Shown: positions 6,699-17,222 of the stretch, one piece after another
Layout: each line of letters begins with the position of its first letter
Numbering within the stretch: the first letter of the stretch is position 1
Source: Bosea sp. 29B
GTDB lineage: Bacteria > Pseudomonadota > Alphaproteobacteria > Rhizobiales > Beijerinckiaceae
Direction of reading: 5' to 3'
DNA: 64,000 nucleotides
NCBI RefSeq assembly: GCF_902506165.1
Contig: NZ_LR733817.1
Location: 4,486,211 to 4,550,210, forward strand
Program-made: the position numbers and the translations under genes
Notes under the pieces: generated by a model
Database searches by the model: none
What the model saw: only the letters and a program-made list of their open reading frames with translations
Told to the model about the DNA's origin: nothing

Positions 6699-7361
6699 AT
6701 GCAGGGCGTGGGCTATTGCGAGCGACTGAGCGGAGCCTTCTGGGCCGAGCCGCTCAACGCAGCCAGTAATGCCGCCTTCATGCTCGCGGCGCTGGCGGCA
6801 TGGCTGCTGCTGCGCCAGCAGGGGCGGCGCGACTGGCCGGCCGAAGCGCTGACGACGCTGGTCGCGATCATCGGCGGCGGCTCCTTCCTGTTCCACACCA
6901 TGCCGCAGCGCTGGACCCTGCTGGCCGATGTCGTGCCGATCCAGCTTTTCGCGCTCTGCTATTTCGGCCTGGCGCTCAACCGGTTCCTTGGCCTGTCGCG
7001 GCTGCTGGCTGCAATCGGCGCGATTCTCTTCCTCGGCGCCTGCTTCGGCCTTGCCTCCGGCGTTACGCTATTGCTGCCGGCGGGCATGCGCGGCTCAGCC
7101 GGCTATGCCGGCTTTCTCATCGGTCTCTTTGGAGTCGCGCTGGCAGCGCGGCTGCGCGGTGATGCGATCACGGGCGGGCGAATCGCCGTCGCCGGCTTCG
7201 TCTTTGCCCTGTCGCTAGGCTTCCGCTCGCTCGATTCGGTGCTTTGCGGCGCGGTACCATTCGGCCTGCACTGGGGCTGGCACCTGCTCAACGGGCTGCT
7301 GCTCTATCTGCTGCTGCGGGCGGCGATCACGCACGACCTGCCGGCCGCGAGCCGCAGCTAG
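6699..7361 (+). CDS. Ceramidase-family (CREST superfamily) membrane protein
   Basis: 220 residues, about seven hydrophobic segments. It begins with YCER then WAEPLNAASNAAFM, contains GGGSFLFHT, TLLADVVPIQLF and, near the C-terminus, HWGWHLLNG. These supply the Ser, His, Asp and HxxxH residues that bind zinc in alkaline ceramidases and related CREST hydrolases. It probably acts on a membrane amide or lipid; the bacterial substrate is unknown. The ATG is preceded by GAGCAGGGC. Stands alone between the DUF1127 gene and a convergent small gene. Confidence 0.85.
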   Translation: MQGVGYCERLSGAFWAEPLNAASNAAFMLAALAAWLLLRQQGRRDWPAEALTTLVAIIGGGSFLFHTMPQRWTLLADVVPIQLFALCYFGLALNRFLGLSRLLAAIGAILFLGACFGLASGVTLLLPAGMRGSAGYAGFLIGLFGVALAARLRGDAITGGRIAVAGFVFALSLGFRSLDSVLCGAVPFGLHWGWHLLNGLLLYLLLRAAITHDLPAASRS

Positions 7362-8148: not shown

Positions 8149-8636
8149 CCAGGCTGACCCTGAAGACCGAAGGCGACACCCATGTCGTCGTCACCCGCCG
8201 CTTCAAGGCCTCGCCCGAGGCGGTCTACCGCGCCCATGTCGAGCCGGCGCTGATCCAGAAATGGCTGCTCGGACCCGATGGTTGGACCATGCCGGTCTGC
8301 ATCAACGATCCTCGGCCAGGCGGCAGGATCCGCTATGAGTGGAGCGACGGCAGCGGCGGCAGCCTCACGTTGACAGGTGAGTACGTCGCGCTCGAGCCGT
8401 TCGGTCGCATCGTTCATGTCGAACGCTTCCACATGCCCGATCCGGCGCCGGACAACATGCCCAATCCGACACCCGACAATCATATCGAGACCCGCTTCGA
8501 GGCCGACGGGGAGGGCACGCTGATGACCATGCGAATGACTTTGCCAGACGCCGCTACCCGCGAGGCGATGCTCGCCACCGGCATGGAATACGGCATGGAG
8601 GCGAGCTATGCCCGCCTCGACGCGCTGCCGGCCTGA
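8145..8636 (+). CDS. SRPBCC/AHSA1-domain protein
   Basis: 163 residues of the Aha1/START-like fold: VVTRRFKASPEAVYRAHVEP at the N-terminus, WLLGPDGWTMPVC, GGRIRYEW, and a C-terminal helix (MLATGMEYGMEASYARLDAL). Such proteins bind small hydrophobic ligands or assist stress responses. The ATGA overlap with the ArsR gene marks a standard two-gene ArsR-SRPBCC operon in which the repressor controls both genes; the ligand is unknown. Confidence 0.92.
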   Translation: MTRLTLKTEGDTHVVVTRRFKASPEAVYRAHVEPALIQKWLLGPDGWTMPVCINDPRPGGRIRYEWSDGSGGSLTLTGEYVALEPFGRIVHVERFHMPDPAPDNMPNPTPDNHIETRFEADGEGTLMTMRMTLPDAATREAMLATGMEYGMEASYARLDALPA

Positions 8637-8729
8637 GCGCCACGCATCCGCCCCACGCGCCGGCGATGGCTTGACCCGCCGCCGGCGCGCCCGGAAGCTT
8701 CCCCCATAATAAGGAGAGGGGAAGCGCAC

Positions 8730-9404
8730 ATGCCGGATCAGGCCAGGGAACTCGATCTCGCCGCGCTGAAGGGCCGGCTCTATTCGGCCGTGCTCTCCGA
8801 TGTCCTCGACGGGCTCGGCCATCCCGACCAGGCGGTGAAGCCCTTCGTGCGCCCGCTCGACGAAGCCAGCGTGCTCTGCGGCTTTGCCCGCACCGGGCTC
8901 TACATGAAGCGCTACCATTTCCCCGAGGGGCACAACCCCTACGCTCTTGAGATGGACCTGATCGACAGCCTGAAGCCCGGCGAGATCCCAGTGCTCGCCT
9001 GCGACGGACCGACCGACCGGATCGCGCCCTGGGGCGAATTGCTCACCACCGCCTCGAAAGTGAGAGGCGCCGCCGGCTGCCTCACCGACGGGCTGGTGCG
9101 CGATGTCCGCCGCATCCGCGAGCTCGGCTTCCCGGTCTTCCATGGCGGCATCGGCCCGCTCGACACCAAGGGCCGGGCCGAGATGATGGCCGCCGACGAG
9201 CCGGTCGAGGTCGGCGGCGCCCGCGTCGCGCCGGGCGATTTCATCTTCGGCGATGTCGACGGCGTCGTCATCGTGCCCCGCGCGATCGCGCCGGAGGCGA
9301 TCCGGCTGGCGCTGGCCAAGATCGAGGCCGAGGATTCGACCCGCGAGGAGCTGCTCGCCGGGAACAGCCTGCGCTCGGTCTTCGAGCGCCACGGGGTGTT
9401 GTGA
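8730..9404 (+). CDS. RraA-family / 4-hydroxy-4-methyl-2-oxoglutarate aldolase-like protein
   Basis: 224 residues. It has the family core GELLTTASKVRGAAGCLTDG-LVRD and GDFIFGDVDGVVIVPR. Members are either class II pyruvate aldolases (HMG/CHA aldolase) or, in enterobacteria, the RNase E inhibitor RraA. The conserved Arg and Asp of TDGLVRD that hold pyruvate and metal are present, so an aldolase or decarboxylase role is more likely than RNase inhibition. AGGAGAGGGG precedes the ATG. It stands as a single-gene unit, followed by repeat copy 2. Confidence 0.85.
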   Translation: MPDQARELDLAALKGRLYSAVLSDVLDGLGHPDQAVKPFVRPLDEASVLCGFARTGLYMKRYHFPEGHNPYALEMDLIDSLKPGEIPVLACDGPTDRIAPWGELLTTASKVRGAAGCLTDGLVRDVRRIRELGFPVFHGGIGPLDTKGRAEMMAADEPVEVGGARVAPGDFIFGDVDGVVIVPRAIAPEAIRLALAKIEAEDSTREELLAGNSLRSVFERHGVL

Positions 9405-9412
9405 CCAACGCC

Positions 9413-9519
9413 GTCATGCTCGGGCTTGACCCGAGCATCTCAGGCCGGAAGAGGCTCTGGTCTGAGCTTTCTCGTCCAGAGATTCTCAGGTCTGCGCTGC
9501 GCTTCGCCCGAGAATGACG
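9413..9519. repeat. Intergenic palindromic repeat, copy 2
   Basis: Second copy of the element at 4396-4502, same orientation. The left hairpin is identical; the right stem has one A:C mismatch (ATTCTCAGG against CCCGAGAAT). It too lies between convergent genes, immediately after one stop codon and just before another. Confidence 0.85.
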
Positions 9520-9526
9520 CCTTGTG

Positions 9527-10027
9527 TCAGCTGCACCGCTCCAGCAGCCGCGAGGCCGCGGTCACGCCTTCGAGCGAGAAGGTGTAGCTCGTCTCGTTGC
9601 CGCGGGCCGAGCGCGCCGCCAGCACCATCTCGTCGCCGGCCTTCATCGCCGCGAGCAATTCGCCTTCGCGCTCCAGCCGCTGCAGCCAGGCATTGTTGCC
9701 CGAGGTCAGCATGCGGAAGCTGTCGTCGCCGATCGTCACGGTGACCGTCGAATCCTTGGCGAAATCATAGCCGGTCTGGAAGCTCGACTCGGTGCGGGCC
9801 TGCGCGTTCGGCGCGGTCTGAACGAAGAAGAACACGTCACCATGACGCAAGGTCGCAGGTGTCTCGGCATTCGGCGATGAGACGATATAGCAACGCTTGC
9901 CTTTATCGCCGTCATAGGCGGCCGCGTTCCACTGCTTGAACTGGCCGAGTGGCTGGGCCGGGGCGGCGAAAGCCGTAGCTGTTGCCGCGAGAAGGCTGAG
10001 CGCCGCGAGAGGGGCCAGTCTGATCAT
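9527..10027 (-). CDS. Invasion-associated locus B (IalB) family periplasmic protein
   Basis: 166 residues. A Sec signal peptide covers about residues 1-23 (ending ATAFAAPA), followed by the IalB layout: WNAAAYDGDKGKRCYIVSSP, FFFVQTAP, a DSFRML segment and a closing single Cys (LLERCS) that can pair with the earlier Cys. IalB was named in Bartonella, but relatives are widespread in non-pathogenic Hyphomicrobiales; the role is unknown. The ATG at 10027 has AGGAGATG upstream, better than an ATG seven codons earlier. Confidence 0.85.
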   Translation of the reverse strand: MIRLAPLAALSLLAATATAFAAPAQPLGQFKQWNAAAYDGDKGKRCYIVSSPNAETPATLRHGDVFFFVQTAPNAQARTESSFQTGYDFAKDSTVTVTIGDDSFRMLTSGNNAWLQRLEREGELLAAMKAGDEMVLAARSARGNETSYTFSLEGVTAASRLLERCS

Positions 10028-10129
10028 CGGGTCATCTCCTGTTTGCATCGCAGGGATGTCCAGGAGCGGTTTAACAAGGCGTAAACAAGACCCTCACAAT
10101 GCCGTGCGACGGAAGGGCGCAAGCAGCCT

Positions 10130-10152
10130 CCTTCTCCCCTCGGGGGAGAAGG
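10130..10152. repeat. Hairpin CCTTCTCCCC-TCG-GGGGAGAAGG
   Basis: 10-bp perfect stem and 3-base loop, continuing into GTCCCGGCAGGGGGATGAGGG. This matches the type of short intergenic palindrome scattered through rhizobial genomes. On either strand it could act as a terminator-like structure, but no T-run follows. Confidence 0.6.
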
Positions 10153-10259
10153 TCCCGGCAGGGGGATGAGGGCGGTTCGACCGGGTGAGCCGCCTGCCGC
10201 TCGCCCTGCATGGAGGCCCTCATCCGTCAGCGCCCTCTTCACCCACGCGCCAAACCCCG

Positions 10260-10279
10260 CCCGCAGGCCTGCCTGCGGG
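10260..10279. repeat. Hairpin CCCGCAGGC-CT-GCCTGCGGG
   Basis: A perfect 9-bp inverted repeat with a 2-base centre in the gene-free region. A half copy (CCCGCAGGCGCC) recurs near 10705. Confidence 0.5.
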
Positions 10280-10530
10280 CGCTTCAGAATACGGGGCTGG
10301 CGGAGCGCCGCGAGGCGCGTTGAGTAGCATCCGCTTCCGTTGAGCCAGGAAGCGGCGCGGATGGTCCCCATCCGCACGCCCCGTGGCGCTCCGCCTTCGG
10401 CTTCTTAAAGTCTCCGGGCCGCGCTTCTGCGAAGCCGGCTGCTGGCCGTGCCGCGATGCCAATGGGCGCCAGTTCCCTCTTCGGGTCGTCGCTCCCTTCG
10501 GCCATCACGCTGGTCCGAGCCGGGTTCGAC

Positions 10531-10616
10531 CGGATTGGATCAATCCGATCGAGCCCGTCTCTCACTTTGAGTGAGAGACCGCTTTGTCCAATCGGCAAGC
10601 CGATTGGAGCGGGCTC
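10531..10616. other. Nested multi-hairpin element of unknown nature
   Basis: An outer stem GAGCCCG (10551-10557) pairs with CGGGCTC (10610-10616). It encloses two perfect hairpins: GTCTCTCACT-TTG-AGTGAGAGAC (10557-10579) and TCCAATCGGC-AA-GCCGATTGGA (10587-10608). A further hairpin, CGGATTG-GAT-CAATCCG (10531-10547), lies just before. The arrangement resembles a three-way junction. It could be a structured RNA, a mobile-element end or a folded DNA element; strand is unknown. Confidence 0.5.
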
Positions 10617-10917
10617 TGTGCAGCCGCTTCATCTAGCGAGCTCCTCGCACAGGGATCGTAGTGTCCCCAGGGCGGTGCCCCGAAGCCTCCCGGGAGCAGG
10701 GCGTAACCCCCGCCCGCAGGCGCCGACCCTCACCCAGCCTCTGGCATACCTCCGGACGGCCGCCCCGTATGGGTGATGGGCGAGGGGATCATACGGGAGA
10801 TTTTGGCAGCGGGGATAAGTTAGTCTTGAGAAGGCCGTGACACAAAATCGCAGCGATACTCTTCCCCGCGCGGCGGCGCTTTCCCACGCGCTAGCCCTAA
10901 ACGAGGGGCTTCAGTGC

Positions 10918-11964
10918 TTATTTGGAGCGGAACATTTGAAAGCAATTGCCTTGCTCAGCGACTGTCATGGCCTTCGCTGCACATTGTTCGACGTAATGTT
11001 GATCTAGAGCCCATCCAACCAGAGCGCCGTTTGCTAGCTGCACTAAATCAATGGATGGTTTCCCCGAATATTGGTAACGAGCAAATTCAATAAGAGCCCC
11101 ATTTTTCTTCAAAATAAAAAAATCTAGTATCCAATCTGGGTGAATTTCTTCATACTCTGGGATATTAGGAATTTCACCGATCGGCGAGCGTATAACATAA
11201 GTTTTTTCCTCTGTACTGAAGCAGCTTAAATAGAGATCATTTCCATAGTATCGTGAGAAAAAGGATTTTCCAGAATTATGCAGCGCTCCGCCCTCGTCAA
11301 TCATCCACGCTCGAAACATAATATTTCCTACCTTCTGAAATCCTTTTTTGTCCGGGTAGGCGACCTCAAATCCACCGCCCCATGATTCTTTCAATCCGGC
11401 TCCAGTCACCAACTGCAAGACAAGGGATCGAGCCGCGAAACGAAGCATATTTGCTCGCGCCAGAAGCCCATCGGCCTGCTCCTGTTCGGGCAATATGCCG
11501 GGGCTATTCTGCAAAAATTCAAAAAAACTGGGTGCGCCGCTGCCAAGTAAGTAAATTCTTTGACCATCTAATTCGAACCCTTGTGTTCTAACACAAAACG
11601 GTTGAACTCCTGTTTTTGAAATAAATAATACCAGCATTTCAGTTTCTTTACTGCAAGTGCTTACAACCTTAAATAATTTATCAAAATCGTCTGTATCACT
11701 CCATTCCTTGGGTAAAATACGGTCGAGTTCTCGAATAATTGTTTCTGCGCTGGCGCGCTGCCCTGCCCACGCAATCATTAGATATGGCCTAACGATGACT
11801 AGCTTCTGAGCGAGTCCGGCTGCGTGATCCTTGCCCAAGCCAGGATGCACGCCCTGTGACCACTGGGTTGGAAGGTCCACCTGAGACGGGAGGCGCCAAG
11901 ATATCAATAGGTCGCTTACAAATGCGGGCAATCCTCCCACGCTGAGTCCTGCAACTAGAGTCAT
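10918..11964 (-). CDS. Proteasome/HslV-like Ntn-hydrolase, island gene
   Basis: 348 residues, unlike housekeeping HslV in length. After removal of Met1 it would begin with Thr (TLVAGLSVGGLPAFVSDLL). Counting from that Thr, Asp falls at position 17 exactly as in proteasome beta subunits and HslV. LAQKLVIVRPYLMIAWAG then resembles the HslV stretch carrying Lys33 and the following AGFAGG, with a longer loop before it (Lys at 53). The C-terminal half is unfamiliar. A Thr-dependent peptidase or amidase is inferred, not shown. The start overlaps the HEPN gene stop (ATGA), so it is the last gene of a three-gene operon. Low GC marks it as foreign. Confidence 0.7.
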   Translation of the reverse strand: MTLVAGLSVGGLPAFVSDLLISWRLPSQVDLPTQWSQGVHPGLGKDHAAGLAQKLVIVRPYLMIAWAGQRASAETIIRELDRILPKEWSDTDDFDKLFKVVSTCSKETEMLVLFISKTGVQPFCVRTQGFELDGQRIYLLGSGAPSFFEFLQNSPGILPEQEQADGLLARANMLRFAARSLVLQLVTGAGLKESWGGGFEVAYPDKKGFQKVGNIMFRAWMIDEGGALHNSGKSFFSRYYGNDLYLSCFSTEEKTYVIRSPIGEIPNIPEYEEIHPDWILDFFILKKNGALIEFARYQYSGKPSIDLVQLANGALVGWALDQHYVEQCAAKAMTVAEQGNCFQMFRSK

Positions 11965-12674
11965 CGTTCTTTCGTCCTATTCGCAGTCTTAATCTTTGTA
12001 ACGTCGACCCCTTTTGCGGCGAGTCGTGGTATGAGTTTATGTTTATAACTTTGGCTCCGCTTCGAAATTGATTCAACTAGGTCGATTTCGGTTATTTTAA
12101 ATCTATTTGGAACTGAAAACAGAAGTTCGTTTCTAATCAAGCAATCGACTACGTAGTCATAGCCAATCGAAGTATCTTCATGATATTCAATTGCGCAGAT
12201 GCCAAAATGCCTATTGATTAACGGATCAACGTTTTTATACAGAAACTCAAGCGAGAGATATCTTAGGTCTATTTTTTCAGATGGAGAGCAAAAATGTTGT
12301 ATGGCGTTTCTAGCTTTTCGTATTCTATTGAAGCTATCAATATCTGGTAATCTTTCTCCCGTCGAAACCCAAAGCAATTTTGGTAAATGCTCAAAATTAT
12401 ACGTTTTTCCCGTTTCAATTAGGTGTTCAATATTTAGTTCTTGGCTGTCGGGATTATCCAATTGAAATAAGTCTCGAAATATCAGGAGCGGGTGTTCTTT
12501 AGCAATAATTGCCTTCAGAAAAAGCTCTCCCGCCATGGACGCATTTAAAACCGACATGTCTGTCCAGTGATCCATTCCAGGATCGTAATAAACAGCGTGC
12601 TGATTGGCTTGTATCAATGCGCCGACCGCGACATTGAAAATGCGAGCCGGTATGTCCTTTAGGGCTGCGTGCAT
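11961..12674 (-). CDS. HEPN-domain protein (putative RNase), island gene
   Basis: 237 residues. Helical N-terminal half with ASMAGELFLKAIIAKE (residues 45-60), a pattern of HEPN domains, followed by FNRIRKARNAIQHF containing Arg122-Asn-Ala-Ile-Gln-His127. This is the RX4H motif that forms the active site of HEPN ribonucleases. The C-terminal part (about 160-237) is not recognised. The start at 12674 has a weak ribosome site, so it is provisional. AT-rich: 21 of 60 bases in 12181-12240 are G or C. It lies 78 bp after the ParB-like gene and overlaps the Ntn-hydrolase gene. Confidence 0.72.
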   Translation of the reverse strand: MHAALKDIPARIFNVAVGALIQANQHAVYYDPGMDHWTDMSVLNASMAGELFLKAIIAKEHPLLIFRDLFQLDNPDSQELNIEHLIETGKTYNFEHLPKLLWVSTGERLPDIDSFNRIRKARNAIQHFCSPSEKIDLRYLSLEFLYKNVDPLINRHFGICAIEYHEDTSIGYDYVVDCLIRNELLFSVPNRFKITEIDLVESISKRSQSYKHKLIPRLAAKGVDVTKIKTANRTKER

Positions 12675-12752
12675 GTGTTGAAAATCCGGCCGGGCGAAAG
12701 GTTCTGAAGTTGTACGAATGCAGGTACTATAATGGTATTATGGTGACAGGCT

Positions 12753-14054
12753 CTAAGCTTTTAAACAAAGAGCCACAAAAGCGGCTAGTGTGCCCCACAG
12801 CATTTTTAAGTGCTCTGGAGAGACGCTGAAGCTTGGTGAATGAACATAGCGATTTAAAGTGTCAATGGATATTATTGCCTCTGCTTGTTGCAGTTTTTTA
12901 AGTGCCCCGAGGTATTTTTTATCTATTTTATTTTTGATGTACATATCTTCAGCAACTTTTATTGCCTTACGCGCTAGGTTGTCATTGCGTTGAATGCTCG
13001 TTAATGGGGCGGATGTTATGTAGTTCTCGATAGAAAGCTCAATCAAAACGCGAAGTAGGACCGAAATAGCATTCTTATGATGGTCTAGTTCAAGTTTGAA
13101 TTGAAGTTCTTCCCAAATTTCGTGATGGCGTTGGAGATGAGCTGTCCAAGTAATACCATAGTCCACTTCGGGAATTATATGCGGCCAGAATGTAAGCTTA
13201 ACCTGACTCGGTTTCAGCGGCGCAAGGGGGGATGACGGCGCCGGGTTTGATGGAGTCTTTGGCTTTGATGCCGCTGTGGGAAGAACGCCTTCTTGGTCGA
13301 GGCGGTCAATGTATTCAAGTTTTGACTCAGTATCCCAAATATCTTCTAACGTAATATTTCGTGTAGCGAGGTCCGTTGCGACGCGCTGAAGTGCCTGAAG
13401 CGTCTTCTGTTCTTCACGTATAAAATCTAGCTTTCCTTTGCGAACAGAAATTCCTAGTCGATTGCGTAAGCTTTCCGCGGATAGCAAGCGATTCATATTG
13501 GATCGTGGAATCTTGCGGCTTGGCAACATGCTCGCCGCCTTAAGTAATTTCTCGATTTCGTCGGCTATATGAAGGCCATTGCCTTTTCCTGTTCGGATGA
13601 CGAAGTTGTTCTTCATCCGATCATCCCAGTTGCTTTGTCCTATACCGCCTTGCACGCCTGTGTGGCGGCGAAAGAGGATATCGTCGACGCGGTCACGATC
13701 TGTCTCAACGCGGCACTCGATGCTCTCTGGGAATTTACCCTTCCATTGCTCTCGCAACTCGGAAAAGAATATCTGAAGCTCCACCGTAGGTGCTCGGCGC
13801 GGTGTGGAAAGCAATTTAAGGCATGTGGTGCGCCGATTGCCATCTGCAACGATGAATTTTTCTCCCGAGGGAAAAACAAGCGGTGGTTCGAAAATCTCGC
13901 CTTTAGAAACTAAGTCTTTGGCCAGATTGCGCATATGCTGCTCTTGCGATGCGAAGAGTTGCGCTATCGCGCCTGTTTCGTTCTCCAACTCGCCATGGCG
14001 ATCGTTCGCTGGATTCACGACCAGCGAATTCAAGGGCACCTTCCGGTATCCCAT
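12753..14054 (-). CDS. ParB/sulfiredoxin-fold protein with C-terminal helical domain, island gene
   Basis: 433 residues. The N-terminal 90 residues have the ParB-like pattern: VPLNSLVVNPANDRH, then EPPLVFPSGEKFIVADGNRRTTCLKLL with GNRR at residues 72-75. A middle helical region and a Pro/Ser linker (about 260-285) lead to a C-terminal helical domain ending in LNRYVHSPSF (from residue 400), which looks like a second, HEPN-like unit. ParB-fold proteins bind or cut nucleic acid and some use CTP; which applies here is unknown. GGGGGGAG precedes the ATG. First gene of the island operon, downstream of uvrA on the same strand. Confidence 0.7.
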   Translation of the reverse strand: MGYRKVPLNSLVVNPANDRHGELENETGAIAQLFASQEQHMRNLAKDLVSKGEIFEPPLVFPSGEKFIVADGNRRTTCLKLLSTPRRAPTVELQIFFSELREQWKGKFPESIECRVETDRDRVDDILFRRHTGVQGGIGQSNWDDRMKNNFVIRTGKGNGLHIADEIEKLLKAASMLPSRKIPRSNMNRLLSAESLRNRLGISVRKGKLDFIREEQKTLQALQRVATDLATRNITLEDIWDTESKLEYIDRLDQEGVLPTAASKPKTPSNPAPSSPLAPLKPSQVKLTFWPHIIPEVDYGITWTAHLQRHHEIWEELQFKLELDHHKNAISVLLRVLIELSIENYITSAPLTSIQRNDNLARKAIKVAEDMYIKNKIDKKYLGALKKLQQAEAIISIDTLNRYVHSPSFSVSPEHLKMLWGTLAAFVALCLKA

Positions 14055-14258
14055 AACGCTCCCCCCGTAACCAAATACCGTGCCGAATAAAGATGCACAT
14101 CCGGCGGGATTTCGAAACCCCGAAGGGCAGGGGCGTTACTTTTATCGGAACGCGGACGAAGACTACTATCGACACAGACCTAGGTGATTCCGGATACCCC
14201 TAACTGCCATTGCGTTAGCGCTAGTAGAGTGATCGCATCCTTCACGGCATTCCCGTTA

Positions 14259-17222
<2,964 letters not shown>

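What the first reader, a model, noticed from the sequence alone, without database searches (positions are those of the whole stretch)
10918..14054. Three-gene AT-rich island: ParB-like protein, HEPN RNase candidate and proteasome-like Ntn hydrolase
Seen: three minus-strand genes in one operon (78-bp gap, then an ATGA overlap), with far lower GC than both flanks (21 of 60 bases at 12181-12240). Gene 1 has a ParB-type GNRR motif, gene 2 an RNAIQH (RX4H) HEPN motif, gene 3 Thr at position 1 after Met removal, Asp at 17 and a Lys-containing stretch resembling HslV. Known: HEPN RNases and ParB-like proteins recur in phage-defence and toxin modules. Inference: a sensor or nuclease, an RNase effector and a peptidase working together, possibly with the peptidase activating or releasing the effector. 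I know of no named system with this set.
Basis: partly seen in the sequence, partly recalled or inferred. Interest (0 to 1): 0.9.

Follow-up and report, generated by a model that had tools for sequence, protein, structure and literature searches.

The report
Protease-RNase pair in defence hotspot
A small foreign gene cassette in a bacterial chromosome, at a spot where a near relative carries a known anti-phage system, pairs a probable RNA-cutting enzyme with a proteasome-like protein-cutting enzyme, which suggests an undescribed kind of immune module that still needs a laboratory test.

The parts
10830..14258 (.). Low-GC cassette; blastn homology to same-genus genome G681 stops at about 10821-10830 and resumes at the uvrA stop codon, 14259
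12753..14054 (-). ParB-like gene, PD-Lambda-5_A type, clade without methyltransferase; GNRR at residues 72-75 (67-70 in the database copy P0224, which starts 5 residues later); conserved C-terminal LNRYVHS
12675..12752 (-). 78-bp gap with a promoter-like match (12765-12737); terminator-like hairpin in the end of the ParB gene (12786-12771); both at background level
11961..12674 (-). HEPN protein, RNxxQH motif at residues 122-127; C-terminal tail of low model confidence
10918..11964 (-). Proteasome-beta-type Ntn hydrolase; Thr2, Asp18, Lys54, Gly68 (= Thr1, Asp17, Lys33, Gly47), beta-rich C-terminal extension from about residue 213; start overlaps the HEPN stop by 4 bp
14259..17200 (-). uvrA (start approximate), conserved flank on one side of the cassette
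9527..10821 (.). Conserved flank on the other side (IalB-family gene 9527-10048 plus DNA up to 10821), about 90% identical in G681 in two blocks

Best explanation
A horizontally acquired anti-phage cassette in an exchangeable slot beside uvrA. Its recurrent core is an overlapping gene pair: a HEPN RNase effector and a dedicated proteasome-beta-type threonine peptidase. Proposed action: infection switches the peptidase or its access to its substrate; it cuts a specific site, most likely in the HEPN protein or in a regulator of it, and this releases HEPN RNase activity, which stops translation and aborts phage growth. The ParB-like protein is a nucleotide-binding, DNA-associated protein of the PD-Lambda-5_A family without the methyltransferase partner; it probably works as a sensor or DNA-side arm with the HEPN protein, or as a second, partly independent defence gene. 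Shown here: sequences, predicted folds, conserved active sites, a hotspot that trades defence genes; indirectly shown: recurrent pairing. Inferred: that it defends, that the HEPN protein cuts RNA, that the peptidase acts on it, and the direction (release rather than restraint).
Confidence: 0.5

Rival explanations
1. Toxin-restraint pair: the peptidase continually degrades or inactivates the HEPN toxin, like an enzymatic antitoxin, and phage shut-off of the host lets the toxin build up.
For: Overlapping two-gene layout and correlated distances fit a toxin-antitoxin pair; the best fold match is a HEPN toxin solved with its enzymatic antitoxin (8xeh, HEPN-MNT).
Against: 19 of 20 fetched HEPN loci have no peptidase, and 10 HEPN-bearing genomes searched whole gave none (98, without a positive control in that set), so the HEPN gene is tolerated without it.
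Confidence: 0.2
2. Two independent defence genes side by side: a solo ParB-like gene and a HEPN-peptidase unit, stacked in a hotspot without working together.
For: ParB stands without HEPN in 13 of 17 loci of its clade and with the peptidase only here; promoter-like match in the gap (104, background level); GC differs between the genes.
Against: The ParB copies directly followed by HEPN in the same direction (window, L002, L091) fall in one supported group of four rows (100/97), the fourth being a broken copy (L093).
Confidence: 0.2
3. Not defence: a stress or housekeeping peptidase with a HEPN adaptor, picked up by chance in a hotspot.
For: Five distant peptidase relatives stand among genes not recognised as defence; HEPN domains can be non-catalytic (recalled).
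Against: Olokun in the same slot; PD-Lambda-5_A gene in the cassette; a distant peptidase relative inside a Type I restriction operon of an Oscillatoria plasmid; HEPN relatives on six plasmids within 5 kb of genes annotated as defence, toxin or ATPase types.
Confidence: 0.1

Closest known systems
PD-Lambda-5 (Vassallo 2022, PMC9519451; section 7 and passages read)
   Same: Gene 1 matches its A component at nearly full length
   Different: The B component, a D12 adenine methyltransferase, is absent from the cassette and, by a profile of 15 such partners with a positive control, from the whole genome; separate clade (128); HEPN and peptidase instead
Proteasome homologs of Fuchs 2021 (PMC8665760; abstract, section 13 and passages read), above all RPC and DPH
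   Same: Thr1/Asp17/Lys33/Gly47 site, no propeptide, C-terminal extension as in RPC
   Different: 20 extra residues between Asp17 and Lys33 (where connectase, PMI-5 and PMI-6 have insertions); a short second helix is modelled though PPH/RPC are said to lack it; that paper found no telling gene context, here there is one
HEPN-MNT toxin-antitoxin and Csm6 HEPN RNases
   Same: HEPN fold and RX4H motif (93, 79)
   Different: Own family without Pfam match; recurrent partner is a peptidase
HEPN with ParB in restriction-type operons (Anantharaman 2013, PMC3710099; passages read)
   Same: HEPN in operon with or fused to ParB is described there (MAE_28990 family, Saro_3948 fusion)
   Different: No proteasome partner (the word does not occur in that text); whether this HEPN is one of those families was not tested

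Membership tests
PD-Lambda-5 | A component (ParB-like) | tested here: met
   PADLOC E=1.2e-74 over residues 1-427
PD-Lambda-5 | B component, D12 adenine methyltransferase | tested here: not met
   none in the cassette; profile of 15 partner methylases: 0 in own genome, 3.9e-138 in control genome G300. Pfam PF02086 also 0, but that model misses some B components (L055)
Canonical ParB partition protein | parA neighbour | tested here: not met
   neighbours are uvrA and the HEPN gene
Canonical ParB partition protein | HTH DNA-binding domain | tested here: inconclusive
   no significant Pfam match of any kind; no model made
Proteasome-like Ntn hydrolases | fold | tested here: met
Proteasome-like Ntn hydrolases | N-terminal Thr after Met, Asp17, Lys33, Gly47 | tested here: met
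   84/85, 86/86, 89/89, 89/89
Proteasome-like Ntn hydrolases | peptidase activity and ring assembly | not testable with these tools
   -
HslV | HslU unfoldase gene beside it | tested here: not met
   neighbours are the HEPN gene and an IalB-family gene
RPC cluster of Fuchs 2021 | second helix lacking | tested here: inconclusive
   model has a short helix 94-101 at that place
RPC cluster of Fuchs 2021 | sequence similarity to its representative | not tested
   sequence not available here
HEPN superfamily | fold | tested here: met
HEPN superfamily | RX4-6H motif | tested here: met
   R122 and H127 in 58 of 58
HEPN superfamily | RNase activity | not testable with these tools
   -
Toxin-antitoxin pair | obligate two-gene unit | tested here: not met
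   HEPN without the peptidase in 19 of 20 fetched loci

The most novel reading that the evidence does not exclude
A proteasome-beta-type threonine peptidase has become a dedicated part of an anti-phage module, switching a HEPN RNase by site-specific cleavage (or, by the connectase-like insertion site, by ligation). To my knowledge this would be the first immune role for a proteasome homolog in bacteria, and the first gene context that hints at the job of one of the unexplained proteasome homolog groups.
Probability: 0.33. Interest if true: 0.87.

Novelty: new variant of a known kind. Interest (0 to 1): 0.7.

Why it matters
Fuchs 2021 describes 22 new proteasome homologs and states that no genomic context suggested a function. 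Here a homolog with an intact active site is tied to a HEPN protein and to a defence hotspot, so a function becomes testable with two point mutants and a plaque assay. It also shows that the ParB-like half of PD-Lambda-5 has a methyltransferase-free branch that meets HEPN and GIY-YIG proteins, so a PADLOC label of PD-Lambda-5_A alone does not mean PD-Lambda-5.

Tried and rejected
Pfam and NCBIfam gave no significant match for any of the three genes, and PHROGs none for HEPN and peptidase; the weak Rng_hyd_C, PspB, IglB and thioredoxin matches look like chance. A profile search of PDB sequences with the peptidase alignment put HslV only at E=0.37, though with the Lys and GSG regions in register; the fold comparison decided. 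The same search with the ParB alignment put a ParB-like chain (6ryk) only at E=0.12. Viral contigs: no relative of peptidase or ParB, one distant HEPN. Phage records: 6 with a ParB relative. Plasmids: peptidase relatives only in Oscillatoria and Candidatus Tenderia (neighbours hypothetical, no conclusion), none for P0034; ParB in 5 records; HEPN in 8, of which 6 were looked at. The family of Hoeflea gave 0 of 131 for the peptidase, and the Mesorhizobium, Rhizobium, Agrobacterium and Methylobacterium loci named could not be read. A longer HEPN tail in peptidase-linked copies (median 27 against 19 residues, p 0.005, 8 against 50) is not used as evidence: relatedness is not corrected, partners of most of the 50 are unknown, one linked copy (P0132) was not in that alignment, and the link of P0147 is one of two readings. 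Repeats at the cassette ends: none of note; tRNA: one in the window, 21 kb away. Literature by search listing: (and 11, 110, 118, 131 on single parts) showed no paper on a HEPN and proteasome-homolog pair; the library holds open-licence PMC papers only, and of the listed papers six were opened, in parts.

Rows dropped before counts: alignment A3 holds 85 of the 103 peptidase hits (short or partial ones left out) plus 4 loci; A4 holds 52 of the 120 listed HEPN hits (491 found) plus 6 loci; A5 holds 27 of the 120 listed ParB hits (1326 found) plus 15 loci. The tree has 35 of 36 ParB loci (L061, split by an insertion element, too short). Contig-length comparisons use only the listed hits. The first own-genome methylase test used a Pfam model that misses some of these methylases; it was repeated with a profile of 15 of them and a control genome.

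Full report
What is there. Searches confirm three minus-strand genes at the stated places: 12753-14054 (433 aa), 11961-12674 (237 aa) and 10918-11964 (348 aa), with a 78-bp gap and then a 4-bp overlap. GC is 0.474, 0.401 and 0.460 by gene against 0.657 for the window, with a change on both sides. Only the last two genes are firmly coupled; the promoter-like and terminator-like matches around the 78-bp gap do not stand out from the shuffles.

Gene 1. Pfam and NCBIfam give nothing significant. PADLOC names it PD-Lambda-5_A, E=1.2e-74 over residues 1-427 (6); PHROGs give phrog_9592 (8.6e-44) and a ParB partition family (2.5e-4). GNRR is invariant in 42 of 42 aligned relatives, and Tyr and His of a C-terminal LNRYVHS motif are in 90% or more. 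PD-Lambda-5 protects E. coli against all but one of ten phages tested, in plating or plaque size, and is read there as a compacted restriction-modification plus abortive-infection system with a predicted methyltransferase (Vassallo 2022, PMC9519451; section 7 and passages). PADLOC's B component is a D12 adenine methyltransferase. Of 36 ParB loci examined, the window included, 17 have such a methylase within 2.5 kb; in the clade of the window it is 0 of 17 (some of these loci lie on short contigs, such as L051, L066 and L092). The clade is supported (16 rows, 97/94; the seventeenth, L061, is split by an insertion element and was not in the tree). A profile of 15 partner methylases finds none in the own genome and finds its known copy in control genome G300. 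So gene 1 belongs to the A family, but the locus is not PD-Lambda-5.

Partners of the methylase-free ParB clade, 17 loci: this HEPN family within 2.5 kb in 4 (window, Hoeflea L002, L091, and convergent in L049); a GIY-YIG protein in 3 (L049, L050, L089; Pfam in 94); the peptidase only in the window. In L048 a Gabija pair follows it (GajA 8.1e-225, GajB 6.9e-205). In L052 it lies in what looks by eye like a Type I restriction operon. Several stand alone. Window, L002, L091 and the broken copy L093 form one group (100/97).

Pairing. Equal longest-contig lengths of at least 3400 bases between the listed hits of gene 3 and gene 2: 9 including the window, against 0.24 on average (maximum 2) when lengths are shifted by 1 to 60. 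In 8 pairs with a clear partner, the window included, protein distances go together (rho 0.83, Mantel p 0.007; 0.84 and 0.83 with a ninth pair in either reading); shared descent of the hosts could add to this. Gene 3 with gene 1: 2 (window and a 4273-base contig), not above the shifted maximum. Gene 2 with gene 1: 3 against 0.33 (maximum 2). This is indirect, as gene order on those contigs was not seen. Against a wide role: apart from the window no close peptidase was found in 385, 347, 131 and 10 genomes (23, 36, 99, 98; samples overlap, and the last two had no positive control), only distant ones in G281, G208, G263, G283 and G708, whose neighbours I did not recognise as defence. One more distant relative (24% identity) sits between genes annotated hsdS and hsdR in a Type I restriction operon.

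The site. In G681, same genus, uvrA is 94% identical in DNA over 1857 bases and the other flank about 90% in two blocks; between window positions 10830 and 14259 blastn finds no match. There G681 carries two genes that PADLOC calls OloA (5.5e-107) and OloB (2e-207), the Olokun system (its anti-phage record is recalled). The other four family members looked at (G283, G554, G618, G189) match at uvrA only. In L003, a Xanthobacteraceae MAG of unknown kinship to the window, uvrA (80% identical protein) is followed after 17 bp by the HEPN gene and then GIY-YIG. None of the 15 other genomes of the family listed has the ParB gene. So the cassette was probably acquired recently and sits in a slot that trades defence genes.

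How it may work. The safest reading is a HEPN effector with a dedicated peptidase. As the HEPN gene stands without the peptidase in 19 of 20 loci, I favour that the peptidase switches HEPN on or widens its trigger, rather than holding it down. The ParB-like protein may supply recognition on the DNA side: relatives of the ParB fold bind CTP, ATP or GTP (Kaljevic 2025, PMC12704722, abstract and passages, 113, 114). None of these steps is shown.

Known or new. HEPN in operon with ParB and methylase was described in 2013 (PMC3710099, passages). A proteasome homolog paired with HEPN did not appear in the searches named under Tried and rejected. I file the cassette as a new variant of a known kind (a HEPN-based defence cassette), with the peptidase as the part that could make it a new kind.

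Noticed in passing
L108 (G681) 8410-12144: Olokun OloA/OloB in the slot that holds the three-gene cassette in the window; part of the flank (window 10712-10830) is present twice in G681, at 7159-7281 and about 8328-8397, which may tell how cassettes swap.
   Followed up: partly
L003 10677-11162; L049 9485-9973; L050 10232-10705; L089 9604-10140: A GIY-YIG (MUG113/T5orf172) protein of about 160-180 residues recurs beside this HEPN family or beside methylase-free ParB, convergent to ParB in three; in L089 an HNH gene overlaps it. Possibly a separate undescribed defence unit; PADLOC has no match for the two tested (L003, L089).
   Followed up: partly
L050 9333-10229: A 298-aa protein between ParB and GIY-YIG weakly matches HEPN_Cthe2314 (E 5.4e-4, below Pfam's cut-off): perhaps a second HEPN type next to the same ParB clade.
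   Followed up: no
L023 5001-6182: Distant relative of the peptidase inside a Type I restriction-modification operon, between hsdS and hsdR, on an Oscillatoria plasmid.
   Followed up: partly
L052 6834-14543: ParB of this family between, by eye, an hsdS-like gene, an ATPase gene and an hsdR-sized gene: PD-Lambda-5_A perhaps inside a Type I restriction operon.
   Followed up: no
L058 7046-11224: HEPN gene directly after a DUF3644 (PDC-S19) gene and before what looks like uvrB, so uvr genes flank this HEPN family more than once.
   Followed up: no
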